Source: Pseudomonas petrae (lineage in GTDB: Bacteria > Pseudomonadota > Gammaproteobacteria > Pseudomonadales > Pseudomonadaceae). From it: 64,000 nt of DNA. The stretch spans positions 62,001 through 126,000 of the forward strand of contig NZ_JAKJXE010000011.1 in the NCBI RefSeq assembly GCF_021728295.1, in the 5' to 3' direction. Below are positions 9,923 to 63,130 of this stretch, piece by piece (position 1 is the stretch's first letter; every line of letters starts with the position of its first letter). The notes beneath the pieces were generated by a model that did not search any database, was not told the DNA's origin, and saw only the letters and a program-made list of their open reading frames with translations. The translations under genes and the position numbers were made by a program.

Positions 9923-10843
9923 TTACTGCCGCTTGAAGGCGTAAAACAGGTTGGGCTCGCTGACCATGTAAATGGTACCGTTCTCGTCCATCGCCACCCC
10001 TTCGGCGCGCGGAATGGTCTGGCTCAGGCCGTTGAAACCGCGCAGCAGCGTCATGAAGCTGACTTGATTACCCTTGCCGTCCAGCTCCAGCAGCATGTGC
10101 GACTCGGCGGACAGCACCAGCAGATGCCCGGTCTTCTGGTCCGCATACAGGGACGACAGATTGCGCACGATCAGGTTGTCGTTGATCAGCTTGCGCTTCT
10201 CGCCCCTCACCTCGCTGCTGCCATCGGCCTTCCAGCTGTACAACGCCGGCGGACGCTCTTCGCCAAACAGGAACTGCTGATCCCGAGGGTCCCAGGCGAT
10301 GCCTTCGAAGGCTTTGTTCTGATCCTTCGAGGGGCCCAGGTCGTACTTGGGGAAGTCGGCGATGTTGAGGGTTTTGGTTTCAGGGGTGACGTGGACGATG
10401 GTCATCAGGTGCTGACGCTCATCGACGATGGCAATCAGACCGTTACCCAGAACGGCTACGCCCTCGGGGTTGCCCCAGCCCTGGAGCGGGATCTTGCGAA
10501 TGACGTCGCCGGTCAGCGTGATCTCGGAAAGGAAGGGGTTCTTGCCCATTACCGAATACAGAGTTTTGCTTGCCGGGTCGTAGGACAGGTCCGAGGCCTC
10601 GTCCTTTTCCATGCCGGCCAGCGGCTTGGCGTCGATATCGACCTTGTAATCCGGCAGCCAGATGCCCGCCGCGCGCTCGGCCGGCGTGACGTTGCGTTCG
10701 CGCAGCCATAACAGGCCGCGATCGTCCCAGTGCCAGGCCAGCGACAGACCGGCGAGGATCACCAACGCCGCGATGAGCAGCCACCACCAACGGAAACGCA
10801 GACGGCTTTTACGGTGTGTTAGCGGTGGGGCGTTATCGACCAT
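9923..10843 (-). CDS. SdiA-regulated (YjiK-type) beta-propeller protein, copy 2
   Basis: A 306-residue paralogue of the adjacent gene, with one N-terminal membrane segment (about residues 20-40) after a basic stretch (HRKSRLRFRWWW), and the same propeller motifs (DLSYDPASKTLYSVMGKN, EGVAMDENGTIYMVSEPNLF). I start it at ATG 10843, which has an AGGA site. A longer reading from TTG 10864 is possible but unsupported. The two copies probably arose by tandem duplication and now differ over much of their length. Function unknown. Confidence 0.83.
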   Translation of the reverse strand: MVDNAPPLTHRKSRLRFRWWWLLIAALVILAGLSLAWHWDDRGLLWLRERNVTPAERAAGIWLPDYKVDIDAKPLAGMEKDEASDLSYDPASKTLYSVMGKNPFLSEITLTGDVIRKIPLQGWGNPEGVAVLGNGLIAIVDERQHLMTIVHVTPETKTLNIADFPKYDLGPSKDQNKAFEGIAWDPRDQQFLFGEERPPALYSWKADGSSEVRGEKRKLINDNLIVRNLSSLYADQKTGHLLVLSAESHMLLELDGKGNQVSFMTLLRGFNGLSQTIPRAEGVAMDENGTIYMVSEPNLFYAFKRQ

Positions 10844-20712: not shown

Positions 20713-20727
20713 CCCCGTCAGAGCTTT

Positions 20728-21226
20728 GGGACTTGGCTGAAGTCCCCACATGTGGGACCTGCCGGAACGCCAACTTGTAGGACCGGCTTTAGCCGGGAAA
20801 GCGCCGGACGTCACACCGCAGAATTTACTGTGCACATGCGGGCCTCTTCCCGGCTGAAGCCGGTCCCACTAACAGCATCGCGTGCATTCAGTGGGACTGG
20901 CTGGAGTCCCAGCTTGTGGAACCTGCCGGAACGCCAACTTGTGGGACCGGCTTTAGCCGGGAAGGCGTCAGGCGTCACACCTCAGAATTTACAGCGCACA
21001 CACCGGCCTCTTCCCGGCTGAAGCCGGTCCCACTAACAGCATCGCGTGCATTCAGTGGGGCTGGCTGGAGTCCCAGCTTGTGGGACCTGCCGGAACGCCA
21101 ACTTGTGGGACCGGCTTTAGCCGGGAAGGCGTCGGACGTTACACCGCAGAATTAACAGCGCGCACACCGGCCTCTTCCCGGCTAAAGCCGGTCCCACTAA
21201 CAGCATCGCGTGCATTCAGTGGGGCC
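20728..21226. repeat. Tandem array: three 164-bp REPIN-containing units
   Basis: Three direct repeats with an exact 164-bp period (matching points at 20752, 20916 and 21080) and the beginning of a fourth copy at 21220. Each unit holds a head-to-head pair of GTGGGACCGGC cores plus a third short TGGCTGGAGTCCCA segment. The copies differ by a few substitutions. It separates hacB from spuH, which converge here. Confidence 0.92.
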
Positions 21227-29590: not shown

Positions 29591-30239
29591 AAATACCTCA
29601 GGGTTTTAATTCCTGGTCGCCGTCATGGCGGTCAGGCGTTCTTTGAAGCGCTGGCGTTACGGTTGCGTGTTTAGTTCAGGCATCGCCAAAATGCCTGGAC
29701 GACTCAAAGATAGTCGGGGTTGTGCAAAACGCGCGGCGGCGGAGGCCGCAGAAAACCTGGGCCGGGTAGTCAGCGGAAGCAAAAGACGCGCCCGCTGGAA
29801 CCGCTGCGCGGATAAAGAGTAAGGTGTCGAGGTGCTGCGCAGAGGCACGCGCAGTGCCCGGCGCGCTGGCTGGGCCGCTACACTGAAAGCGTGTGATGTG
29901 AAAAGCAGGTGCCCGAATGGCTGAGTGCAGGCGGTGAGGCCGATCAGCGGAAGGCGAAGCATGAGACCCCCGGTATTATTGCTGTTATGGGTTGCAATCG
30001 AGCTTAGCGTTGTTCATTTTTTTCCACAACACGCCCGTAAAAAATAAAACACGCCCTGCTCAAACCCGCAGCTTGCATGACGTTCGGCGCACAACATTTG
30101 CCCTAAAGTGCGGCGAAAATGGCTTTTTGGCGCCCTTTTAGGGCAAATCAGGGCTCCCTTGACTTCGTCTGGCCTTTCGGATTGACTGAAACCCGTAATG
30201 CTCGATGATTGATATTTTCAACAACAAAGGTGTTGCATC
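29591..30239. other. Divergent spuB-spuI control region with no gene
   Basis: In P. aeruginosa the amidotransferase gene spuA lies next to spuB at this locus. Here I find no such reading frame and no trace of one. The stretch must hold the two divergent promoters. Its right part is less GC-rich and contains the inverted repeat at 30096-30148. A minus-strand frame at 29657-29962 has arginine/alanine-rich shadow composition and no ribosome site. Confidence 0.6.
30096..30148. promoter_or_regulatory. Perfect 12-bp inverted repeat upstream of spuI
   Basis: ATTTGCCCTAAA at 30096-30107 and its exact complement TTTAGGGCAAAT at 30137-30148 are separated by 29 bp, with arm centres 41 bp apart, about four helical turns. 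The element lies about 90 bp ahead of the spuI start. It looks like a paired operator, and a polyamine-responsive repressor such as PauR would be the obvious candidate. As RNA it could also form a hairpin in the spuI leader. Confidence 0.6.
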
Positions 30240-41867: not shown

Positions 41868-42701
41868 ATGAGCATCGACATCCACCCGCTCAGCCCGGCA
41901 TTGGGCGCACAGATCAGCAGCGTTGACCTGAGCCGCGACCTGAACGGCGAACAACGCGACGTCATTGAACGGGCGCTGCTTGATCATCAGGTGCTGTTCT
42001 TTCGCGATCAGCCGATCACGCCGCAGCAACAAGCGCGATTCGCCGCCAACTTTGGTGACCTGCACATTCATCCGATCTACCCCAACGTGCCAGAACAGCC
42101 TGAAGTGCTGATTCTCGATACCGCGGTCACCGACGTGCGCGACAACGCCATCTGGCACACGGATGTCACCTTTCTGCCGACGCCTGCGCTGGGGGCGGTG
42201 CTCAGCGCCAAGCAGGTGCCGGCTTACGGTGGCGACACGTTGTGGGCGAGCGGAATTGCTTCGTTCGAAGCGCTCTCCCGGCCGATGCAGACGTTGCTCG
42301 ACGGCTTGACCGCAACCCATGACTTCACCCGGTCATTCCCGCTGGAGCGTTTTGGCAGCACGGCGGAAGACCTCGCCCGCTGGGAGGAGACTCGCCGCAA
42401 AAATCCGCCGCTGTCGCACCCGGTCATTCGCACGCACCCGGTCAGCGGTCGCAAGGCGCTGTTCGTCAACGACGGTTTCACCACCCGGATCAATGAACTG
42501 GAAGCGGCAGAGAGTGAGGCAGTCCTGAAATTGCTGTTCGCCCATGGCACGCGGCCGGAGTTCACCTTGCGCTGGCGCTGGCAGGCGAACGACGTGGCGA
42601 TGTGGGACAACCGCGTGACACAGCATTACGCGGTCGACGATTACCGCCCGCAGCGCCGCGTGATGCATCGCGCGACGATCCTGGGTGATGCGCCGTTTTG
42701 A
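41868..42701 (+). CDS. tauD: Taurine dioxygenase
   Basis: 2-Oxoglutarate/Fe(II) dioxygenase that oxidises taurine to sulfite and aminoacetaldehyde so the cell can use its sulfur. The 277-residue protein has iron ligands His97 and Asp99 (WHTDVTF) and His253 (NRVTQHYAV), with the 2-oxoglutarate arginine in DYRPQRR just after. Normal length (277 to 283). Last gene of tauABCD. Its 3' end is followed after 21 bases by the large 136-bp tandem array. Confidence 0.95.
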
Positions 42702-42722: not shown

Positions 42723-43934
42723 GATGCTTTTAGTGGGACCGGCTTCAGCCGGGAAGAGGCCGCTAGGTGCGCTATAGACTTGCAGCGTACCGACTGACGC
42801 CTTCCCGGCTAAAGCCGGTCCCACAATTTAGGGTTCAGCGAGCCCACTGCATGCACGCGATGCTTTTAGTGGGACCGGCTTCAGCCGGGAAAAGGCCGCT
42901 AGGTGCGCTATAGACTTGCGGCGTAACGCCTGACGCCTTCCCGGCTAAAGCCGGTCCCACAACTTAGGGTTCAGCGAGCCCACTGCATGCACGCGATGCT
43001 TTTAGTGGGACCGGCTTCAGCCGGGAAGAGGCCGCTGGGTGCGCTATAGACTTGCGGCGCAACGCCTGACGCCTTCCCGGCTAAAGCCGGTCCCACAATT
43101 TAGGTTTCAGCGAGCCCACTGCATGCACGCGATGCTTTTAGTGGGACCGGCTTTAGCCGGGAAGAGGCCGCTGGGTGCGCTATAGACTTGCGGCGCAACG
43201 CCTGACGCCTTCCCGGCTAAAGCCGGTCCCACAATTTAGGGTTCAGCGAGCCCACTGCATGCACGCGATGCTTTTAGTGGGACCGGCTTCAGCCGGGAAG
43301 AAGCCGCTGGGTGCACTGTAGATTTGCGGTGTAGCACCTGACGCTTTCCCGGCTAAAGCCGGTCCCACAATTTAGAGATCAGCGAGCCCACTGCATGCAC
43401 GCGATGCTTTTAGTGGGACCGGCTTCAGCCGGGAAAAGGCCGCTGGGTGCGCTATAGACTTGCGGCGTAACGCCTGACGCCTTCCCGGCTAAAGCCGGTA
43501 CCACAATTTAGGGTTCAGCGAGCCCACTGCATGCACGCGATGCTTTTAGTGGGACCGGCTTCAGCCGGGAAGAGGCCGCTGGGTGCGCTATAGACTTGCG
43601 GCGTAACGCCTGACGCCTTGCCGGCTAAAGCCGGTCCCACAATTTAGGGTTCAGCAAGCCCGCTGCATGCACGCGATGCTTTTAGTGGGACCGGCTTCAG
43701 CCGGGAAGAAGCCGCTGGGTGCACTGTAGATTTGCGGTGTAGCACCTGACGCTTTCCCGGCTAAAGCCGGTCCCACAATTTAGGGTTCAGCGAGCCCACT
43801 GCATGCACGCGATGCTTTTAGTGGGACCGGCTTCAGCCGGGAAGAGGCCGCTAGGTGCGCTATAAACTTGCGGCGTAACGCCTGACGCCTTCCCGGCTAA
43901 AGCCGGTCCCACAATTTAGAGATCAGCGAGCCCA
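42723..43934. repeat. Tandem array of nine 136-bp REPIN units
   Basis: Nine direct copies with an exact 136-bp period, starting at 42723, 42859, 42995, 43131, 43267, 43403, 43539, 43675 and 43811, the last cut short at 43934. Each copy has a head-to-head pair GTGGGACCGGCTTCAGCCGG ... CCGGCTAAAGCCGGTCCCAC and the linker GCGAGCCCACTGCATGCACG. No insertion or deletion occurs between copies. Copies 5 and 8 share a private set of substitutions, and copies 3 and 4 share another, which points to block duplication. No gene is present. Confidence 0.95.
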
Positions 43935-44271: not shown

Positions 44272-44685
44272 TTATTCCTCTCGGAGACTGACCTCCAGTC
44301 TCCAGCGCCCGTCCTGGGTTGCACCGCGCCAGTCGCCGTGCAGAGGACGGGCCGCCAGCAGGTTCAGCAACAATCCCTTATCGCTTCGTTGCACCCTCCA
44401 GCGCACGTCTTTGCCGTTGAGCTTCAGCTCGCCTTTCTGCGCCTGACCCTGGGCGTTGAACAGCAACGCCACCGCGCCATCGATGTGTTCGCCATGGAGC
44501 TGCGGCTCGCGGTTGAACCACACGGCAACGCCGTCAGGTAACGCTTCAATGCTTTGCAGCTGAATGGGGTCCGGGGTCGTCACGCGGCCGATCATCAGCC
44601 CGACCATCACACCAACGATCGCCACCGAGCCCAGAAACTTGAGCCATAGCTTCGGTCTGGGGTCTTCTTCAGGGGTAGAATGCAT
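44272..44685 (-). CDS. Conserved hypothetical single-pass membrane protein
   Basis: A 137-residue protein with one membrane segment (about residues 17-42: LWLKFLGSVAIVGVMVGLMI) and a soluble, probably periplasmic, beta-rich C-terminal part. It matches in position the small unknown gene beside trmL in P. aeruginosa (PA5126 as I recall). Start 44685 has AAAGGA at close spacing. ATG 44712 would overlap the trmL start codon on the other strand. Function unknown. Confidence 0.75.
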   Translation of the reverse strand: MHSTPEEDPRPKLWLKFLGSVAIVGVMVGLMIGRVTTPDPIQLQSIEALPDGVAVWFNREPQLHGEHIDGAVALLFNAQGQAQKGELKLNGKDVRWRVQRSDKGLLLNLLAARPLHGDWRGATQDGRWRLEVSLREE

Positions 44686-44710
44686 CCCGTCCTTTCGTTC
44701 GGAGCCGTGC

Positions 44711-45166
44711 ATGTTTCACGTGATCCTTTTTCAACCAGAAATTCCGCCGAATACCGGCAACATCATCAGGCTCTGCGCCAACAGCGGCTGCAGCCTGCAT
44801 TTGATCGAGCCGCTGGGCTTCGAGCTGGATGACAAGCGCCTGCGTCGAGCCGGCCTTGATTACCACGAATACGCCACGCTGCATCGTCACGCCGACCTGC
44901 CGAGCTGCCTTGAAAGCATCGGCCATCCGCGGCTGTTCGCTTTTACCACAAAGGGCTCGCGGGTTTTCCACGATGCGCAGTTCGAGGAGGGTGATGCGTT
45001 CCTCTTCGGCCCGGAAAGCCGAGGCCTCCCGCCGGAGGTGCTGGACCCGTTGTCAAGCGACCAACGCCTGCGCCTGCCGATGCGCGAAGGCTGCCGCAGT
45101 CTGAATCTGTCGAATACTGTGGCGGTTGCAGTGTATGAGGGTTGGCGGCAGTTGGGGTTCCGATAG
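44711..45166 (+). CDS. trmL: tRNA (cytidine/uridine-2'-O)-methyltransferase
   Basis: SPOUT-family enzyme that methylates the ribose of nucleotide 34 in tRNA-Leu isoacceptors. The 151-residue protein contains the trefoil-knot motifs PEIPPNTGNIIRLCANSG, LFGPESRGLP and SLNLSNTVAVAVYE. GGAG precedes ATG 44711. The start is only 25 bases from that of the divergent membrane protein, so the promoters overlap or lie inside the opposite gene. Confidence 0.95.
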   Translation: MFHVILFQPEIPPNTGNIIRLCANSGCSLHLIEPLGFELDDKRLRRAGLDYHEYATLHRHADLPSCLESIGHPRLFAFTTKGSRVFHDAQFEEGDAFLFGPESRGLPPEVLDPLSSDQRLRLPMREGCRSLNLSNTVAVAVYEGWRQLGFR

Positions 45167-63054: not shown

Positions 63055-63130
63055 GCCCAGATAGCTCAGTCGGTAGAGCAGGGGATTGAAAATCCCCGTG
63101 TCGGCGGTTCGATTCCGTCTCTGGGCACCA
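63055..63130 (+). tRNA. tRNA-Phe (GAA anticodon)
   Basis: A 76-nt cloverleaf with CCA encoded: acceptor GCCCAGA pairs with TCTGGGC, D-arm GCTCAGTCGGTAGAGC, anticodon stem GGGGA/TCCCC with loop TTGAAAA (anticodon GAA at 63088-63090), a five-base variable loop GTGTC, and T-arm GGCGG-TTCGATT-CCGTC. It follows yggX, as in P. aeruginosa. Confidence 0.98.

What the first reader, a model, noticed from the sequence alone, without database searches (positions are those of the whole stretch)
42723..43934. Nine-copy tandem array of 136-bp REPIN units after tauD
REPINs are normally dispersed single pairs. Here nine complete units repeat with an exact 136-bp period and no indels. Copies 5 (43267) and 8 (43675) share a private set of substitutions (GAAGAAGCCGCTGGGTGCAC ... 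GTAGCACCTGACGCTTT) but differ in the linker, while copy 9 shares the copy 5 linker end (AGAGATCAG). That pattern indicates block duplication by unequal exchange followed by divergence. The array lies at the end of an operon and next to a synteny break, and could act as an RNA stabiliser, a gyrase/IHF site or a recombination hot spot.
Basis: seen in the sequence. Interest (0 to 1): 0.72.

Follow-up and report, generated by a model that had tools for sequence, protein, structure and literature searches.

The report
Tandem REPIN array after taurine genes
Nine head-to-tail copies of a known bacterial hairpin repeat sit behind a taurine-use gene; the same genome carries more than twenty similar arrays, so this one is an ordinary example, though most arrays with a long spacer share that spacer sequence.

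Summary
Window 42723-43934 holds eight full 136-bp units and a ninth cut at 124 bp, without indels. Each unit is a REPIN (two inverted REPs) plus a 44-nt linker. Copies 5 and 8 do share eight private states.

The special status fails. The unit has 277 matches in the same draft genome. TRF finds REP-unit arrays at 27 places (20 picked as clustered, two in the window, five in an 800-kb sample), one longer at 11.6 copies. Arrays also occur in a single-contig relative and in P. graminis DSM 11363, there up to 9.3 copies. A RAYT gene lies beside one array. This is the tandem REPIN cluster or BIME already in print.

New here: at the orthologous site five relatives lack this REP, four closer ones hold one unit, about 1.5 units, or half a REPIN. 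"Block duplication" is not supported; the copies look like a recombination mosaic. The long linker is homologous at 16 of 18 loci, which suggests that REPIN plus linker spread as one unit.

The parts
42723..42858 (+). unit 1 (136 bp): REPIN at unit positions 11-102, then the first part of the linker
42859..42994 (+). unit 2
42995..43130 (+). unit 3
43131..43266 (+). unit 4
43267..43402 (+). unit 5, carries the variant loop shared with unit 8 and the AGAGATCAG linker end shared with unit 9
43403..43538 (+). unit 6
43539..43674 (+). unit 7
43675..43810 (+). unit 8, variant loop as in unit 5
43811..43934 (+). unit 9, 124 of 136 bp; REPIN complete, linker cut at CAGCGAGCCCA
42825..42868 (+). first of eight internal 44-nt linkers; homologous to the linkers of unlinked arrays
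41868..42701 (+). tauD (PF02668); its stop codon ends 21 bp before the array
44272..44712 (-). small conserved gene of unknown function (no Pfam hit at E 0.01), convergent with tauD across the array
44714..45166 (+). SpoU-family methylase gene (PF00588), called trmL here from recall

Best explanation
This is a BIME-like tandem REPIN array: non-autonomous repeats, most likely mobilised by the genome's RAYT (TnpA-REP) transposase. They landed after tauD within the P. graminis group, and copy number then rose and fell by recombination or slippage between near-identical units, with gene conversion shuffling variants among copies. Shown: the unit anatomy; many sister arrays in the same genome; a RAYT gene beside one of them; alleles without this REP and with half, one, about one and a half, and nine units at the orthologous site; a mosaic pattern of variants; homologous linkers at unlinked arrays. 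Inferred: that RAYT did the moving, that recombination or slippage changed the copy number, and any effect on tauD RNA. A host function is not needed to explain it. If there is one, the likeliest is a chain of strong hairpins in the tauD 3' UTR that slows 3' exonucleases or marks the transcript end between convergent genes.
For: 277 matches of the unit in the genome. REP core 954 times with at most one mismatch, 0 for the reversed control. TRF arrays in 20 of 20 places picked as clustered, two in the window and five in a contiguous 800-kb sample. RAYT hit to NF047646 (E 5.3e-41) 34 bp from an array. Orthologous-site alleles. 17 incompatible site pairs among 22 biallelic sites. By a crude gene caller 0 of 22 arrays lies in a divergent gap, against 88 of 384 gaps in the sample.
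Against: No transposition or excision was observed. The draft assembly could have the copy number wrong: three contigs end inside such arrays (C17, C19, C10) and C9 has two REPINs starting 70 bp from its end. The gene caller was crude and misread the neighbour of this very array. Recurrent mutation could make some of the incompatible pairs.
Confidence: 0.88

Rival explanations
1. A selected regulatory element: the nine hairpins act as a dedicated 3' RNA stabiliser or transcription barrier for the tau operon.
For: The array starts 21 bp after the tauD stop; strong RNA hairpins; 0 of 22 arrays lie in divergent gaps. In 17 of 29 other genus loci an inverted repeat with arms of 24 bp or more, many of them REP-like and of other sequence, also lies within 250 bp after tauD (no shuffled control), so hairpins at this place recur.
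Against: At the orthologous site this REP is absent, single or broken in relatives that keep tauD, and four of five that lack it have no inverted repeat of 11 bp or more there. The same arrangement follows many unrelated genes. Avoidance of promoters gives the same 3'-end bias without a function.
Confidence: 0.08
2. Assembly artefact: the true locus has fewer or more units.
For: 36-contig draft; three contigs end inside such arrays; contig ends C17 and C10 carry the same linker.
Against: Units differ at 23 positions and both flanks match those of relatives. Arrays of up to 4.1 copies occur in a single-contig relative genome.
Confidence: 0.1
3. Block duplication of several units by unequal exchange made copies 5 and 8.
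For: Copies 5 and 8 differ at two positions only.
Against: Units beside 5 and 8 are not more alike than average; lag-1 and lag-3 permutation tests give 0.60 and 0.14; the shared states all lie within 44 bp, chance 0.0013, as a copied tract would.
Confidence: 0.15

Closest known systems
Tandem REPIN clusters of P. fluorescens SBW25 (Bertels and Rainey 2011, PMC3116915; passages seen)
   Same: [quoted passage not shown] 16 such clusters; some beside RAYT genes; also tandem arrays of up to 12 REPs
   Different: Largest REPIN cluster there four REPINs plus one REP; here nine REPINs (18 REPs), another REP sequence and a 44-nt linker
BIME-2 and related BIMEs (PMC2817692, PMC8266576, PMC6379681; passages seen)
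   Same: REPs in alternating orientation, regular spacing, basic modules head to tail, length differs between strains, RAYT-associated
   Different: In Stenotrophomonas the inter-REP segments are said to show no homology with each other; here the long linker is homologous at 16 of 18 loci. Gyrase binding untested here
GTAG-tagged REP dimers (PMC3733652; passages and section 14 seen)
   Same: [quoted passage not shown] TT and HH dimers with typical spacers
   Different: TT spacers are said to be variable as a rule of thumb; here the TT spacer (the linker) is conserved in most long-linker arrays examined

Membership tests
REPIN | Two inverted REPs that form one hairpin | tested here: met
   inverted REP pairs; long hairpin, 0 of 200 shuffles fold as well
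REPIN | High copy number, mostly extragenic | tested here: met
   954 REP cores; 24 of 26 clusters not inside a called gene in an 800-kb sample
REPIN | Cognate RAYT gene in the genome, near such REPs | tested here: met
   NF047646 hit at L223:3420-3893 beside an array of the same REP; that it is the cognate one is inferred from position
REPIN | Mobilised by RAYT | not testable with these tools
   needs excision or transposition data
BIME-2-like tandem array | REPs in alternating orientation, head-to-tail modules | tested here: met
   18 REPs alternating + and - at spacings 64 and 72
BIME-2-like tandem array | Length polymorphism between strains | tested here: met
BIME-2-like tandem array | Strong DNA gyrase binding | not testable with these tools
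   reported for E. coli BIME-2 (PMC6379681)
BIME-1 (IHF-binding) | IHF site in the inter-REP sequence | tested here: not met
   strict consensus WATCARNNNNTTR (recalled) absent from the array; one match in the whole window, at 10433. Weaker sites not tested

The most novel reading that the evidence does not exclude
In this Pseudomonas lineage the spreading entity is not the bare REPIN but a composite: REPIN plus a 44-nt linker that contains an eroded third REP arm. Arrays at unlinked sites descend from array units copied with their linker, not from local duplication of single REPINs. The 12 nt at the junctions of this array match the family linker, yet are absent at both outer edges and in the one-unit allele, so one-unit and half-unit alleles may be shrunken arrays instead of ancestors.
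Probability: 0.35. Interest if true: 0.45.

Novelty: new member of a known kind. Interest (0 to 1): 0.22.

Why it matters
As a single locus it matters little: tandem REPIN/BIME arrays are described. What is useful is the allele series at one site (no such REP, half, one, about one and a half, nine units) and the shared linker at unlinked arrays. Together they allow a test of whether arrays grow in place from single REPINs or travel as composite units. The arrays are also likely trouble spots for draft assemblies in this group.

Tried and rejected
Higher-order periodicity: TRF reports 2- or 3-unit super-periods in some other arrays, but order-permutation tests for lag 3 were not significant in the 13 arrays tested (lowest 0.055); dropped. 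Lag 1 reached p <= 0.05 in four of 13.

Import of the copy 5/8 loop from elsewhere in the genome: no match other than copies 5 and 8 with up to 3 mismatches in 48 bp. Some of its states are common in other REPINs of the sample (position 57 T in 123 of 148, 49 A in 101 of 148, 64 T in 91 of 148; automatic alignment, so approximate). Four of eight (36, 52, 57, 64) are seen in relatives at the orthologous site by direct reading, so it may be an older variant. The alignment misplaced at least two relative rows (position 57 of L082 second copy and of G020), so I rely on direct reading there. Unsettled.

Promoter and terminator scans of the region: none found. Rfam at gathering threshold: nothing at the array. 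Conserved structure in the linker: none predicted. Short linkers (9 loci, including two contig ends that are probably one array): mean pairwise score 4.44 against 3.83 shuffled, highest shuffle 4.31, a weak excess partly due to that shared pair.

Rows dropped: the linker model was built from 16 of 18 long linkers; L049 and L176 do not align and are counted as misses. The model hits (103 in G000, 40 in G020) partly overlap REP arms and only 150 candidates per genome were scored, so I do not use them as a count of linkers.

Full report
Observation. TRF finds one array at 42723-43934 with period 136, 8.9 copies, 94% matches and no indels. Cutting by 136 gives eight full units and a last unit of 124 bp. 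There are 23 variable positions. Copies 5 and 8 share eight private states, all in unit positions 36-79, and differ from each other only at 110 and 112, where copy 5 agrees with copy 9. Each unit is GATGCTTTTA, then a REPIN (unit positions 11-102), then 34 bp; REPIN end to next REPIN start is a 44-nt linker. The REPIN folds into a long hairpin: RNA -63.9 to -67.3 kcal/mol for three units against shuffle means of about -33 to -37.

Setting. Upstream are tauC (BPD_transp_1) and tauD (PF02668). The tauD stop ends at 42701, 21 bp before the array. Downstream, 44272-44712 (-) is a small gene without a Pfam hit, and 44714-45166 (+) a SpoU-family methylase (the name trmL is recalled). The array therefore lies between convergent genes. 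My crude gene caller missed the small gene and called this site co-oriented.

Is it unusual in its genome? No. The unit has 277 matches in the draft genome of 5.85 Mb in 36 contigs. The REP core occurs 954 times with up to one mismatch, and never when the pattern is read backwards. I fetched 20 places that one search showed as clustered. TRF reports tandem arrays in 20 of 20, with top copy numbers 11.6 (period 139), 7.9 (136), 7.9 (113) and 6.7 (140). To have a less selected sample I read 800 kb of contig C1: 83 REPs in 26 clusters (2 of one REP, 11 of two, 6 of three, 7 of four or more) and five REP-unit arrays by TRF. The window holds a second array at 20727-21223. That makes 27 places with TRF arrays, though the C17 and C10 contig ends may be one array. 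The window array is second by copy number.

Other genomes. Of 11 stretches picked from matches in relatives, 9 have REP-unit arrays by TRF: four of six in G020, a single-contig genome (138 x 3.2, 139 x 3.1, 113 x 4.1, 310 x 1.9), two of two in CFBP 13711, one of one in P. graminis WP_8, two of two in P. graminis DSM 11363, one of them 143 x 9.3. DSM 11363, which I recall as the type strain, has no tauD at the orthologous place, so that array is at another locus.

Mover. PF01797 has three matches in the genome. One of them (L223:3420-3893, minus strand) is a REP-associated tyrosine transposase by NCBIfam (NF047646, E 5.3e-41), 34 bp from an array of about five units (4.9 by TRF) with the same REP. 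RAYT genes beside REPIN clusters are reported for SBW25 (PMC3116915), and one third of RAYT genes are said to be directly associated with BIMEs in PMC2817692.

Orthologous site. A scan with the small neighbouring gene gave the best 80 of 111 loci; with G020 that is 81 tested. tauD is directly adjacent in nine. Of these, five have no such REP in the gap at up to three mismatches (L085, L088, L092, L093, L135); L088 has a different inverted repeat there, and in the other four no inverted repeat of 11 bp or more was found within 250 bp after tauD. Four have it: one complete REPIN in L086 (Pseudomonas sp. CFBP 13711), about one and a half units with the same junction in L082 (P. graminis WP_8), and half a REPIN in L083 (P. 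graminis UASWS1507) and in G020. The other 72 loci, among them P. graminis DSM 11363, show no tauD hit; in four of these (L100, L132, L154, L158) only 196 to 733 bp were held on that side, so they could not show it. In 29 genus loci other than the window's own, only G020 has this REP after tauD at up to five mismatches. So within what I examined this REP sits here only in the graminis group, and its length varies. Other inverted repeats do occur here: 17 of the 29 have one with arms of 24 bp or more within 250 bp after tauD, many resembling REPs of other families (no shuffled control). The end of tauD is thus a recurrent place for such repeats, which fits ordinary REPIN behaviour but would also fit a 3'-end role.

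Direction of change. Whether one unit is ancestral is open: the junction in the window and in L082 holds about 12 nt (CTGCATGCACGC in the window) that match the linkers of unlinked arrays but are absent at both outer edges of the array and in the one-unit allele. Simple duplication of the one-unit allele would not by itself make them.

Copies 5 and 8. A block duplication predicts that their neighbours also match. They do not: copies 4 and 7 differ at 5 sites and 6 and 9 at 6, against a mean of 5.24 over the 21 pairs of ordinary copies. The eight shared states fall within 44 bp, which eight random sites do with probability 0.0013. Seventeen pairs of 22 biallelic sites show all four combinations; they are not independent, since most join the 5/8 block to sites 110 and 112. 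This points to exchange or conversion among copies. Recurrent mutation is not excluded. Lag tests for this array: lag 1 p 0.60, lag 3 p 0.14.

Linkers. One linker per locus was taken from 18 loci with long linkers. Of 153 pairs, 92 score above the 99th percentile of shuffled linkers, where about 1.5 are expected; 16 of 18 loci take part, L049 and L176 do not. The mean local score is 13.9 against 6.36 (SD 0.11) in 200 shuffles. The stretch CAGCCAGTCCCAC of the linker consensus resembles the end of the REP right arm (AAGCCGGTCCCAC); this is my reading of the sequence. Isolated REPINs: of ten, the left part of the linker is found at p <= 0.01 in one and at p <= 0.05 in three; for the whole linker two reach p <= 0.01. 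Of seven REPINs with a lone REP nearby, three reach p <= 0.01 for the left part. Of 33 array groups 18 do, but 16 linkers had served to make the consensus, so most of that is circular; modal flanks were used, so some arrays (L045, L061, L177) were judged on an outer edge. The contrast between arrays and isolated REPINs therefore rests on small numbers; the homology between arrays does not. It differs from Stenotrophomonas BIMEs, whose inter-REP segments are said to show no homology with each other (PMC2817692), and from the rule of thumb that TT spacers are variable (PMC3733652). In the papers of which I saw passages this linker is not mentioned. My searches were by words, not by its sequence, and the library lacks most subscription papers; one BIME paper I asked for is not held.

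Gene context. Of 22 arrays, by a crude ORF caller, 11 are convergent, 11 co-oriented, 0 divergent. In the 800-kb sample 88 of 384 gaps of 60 bp or more are divergent, and 4 of 26 REP clusters lie in divergent gaps, but none of the seven clusters with four or more REPs. With a 22.9% base rate, 0 of 22 has a probability near 0.003 (my arithmetic). This fits either selection against insertions near promoters or a 3'-end role.

Function. No promoter-like or terminator-like site was found and no strict IHF consensus in the array. Gyrase cleavage is enriched in E. coli BIME-2 (PMC6379681), which cannot be carried over without a test. In an E. coli mutation-accumulation experiment five copies of a six-REPIN tandem cluster were deleted in one line (PMC8049555), which shows that such arrays shrink in real time.

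Verdict. A correct observation of an ordinary kind of object: a long example of a tandem REPIN or BIME array in a genome rich in them. The added points worth keeping are the allele series at the tauD site and the shared linker.

Noticed in passing
window 20727-21223: A second REPIN array, period 164, 3.0 copies, opposite orientation, with a longer linker that seems to carry eroded REP pieces and has the same linker core.
   Followed up: partly
L223:2592-3893 (G000 contig C4, 125591-126892): A RAYT gene sits 34 bp from a REPIN array of about five units, with further REPs on its other side.
   Followed up: partly
L014-L041, first 250 bp after tauD: Seventeen of 29 other Pseudomonas loci carry an inverted repeat with arms of 24 bp or more just after tauD, many looking like REP pairs of other families. 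Whether this gene end is a preferred target was not tested against other genes.
   Followed up: partly
L044 (end of contig C17) and L046 (end of contig C10): The two contig ends carry REPIN arrays with the same linker, probably one array broken by the assembly.
   Followed up: no
L053 (G000:C35:261954-263570): The longest array seen in this genome: 139 bp x 11.6, also read by TRF as a 415-bp three-unit repeat.
   Followed up: partly
G000:C1:377053-378039 and 409023-409626: Tandem repeats of 111 bp and 217 bp without REPs; nature not examined.
   Followed up: no
window 29966-30146: Pseudomonas sRNA P1 (RF00623), 149.8 bits; a tRNA at 63055-63127.
   Followed up: no
L084 (P. graminis DSM 11363): This strain has the small neighbouring gene but no tauD within the 5 kb read, so the tau operon at this place is not fixed in the species as named.
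   Followed up: no
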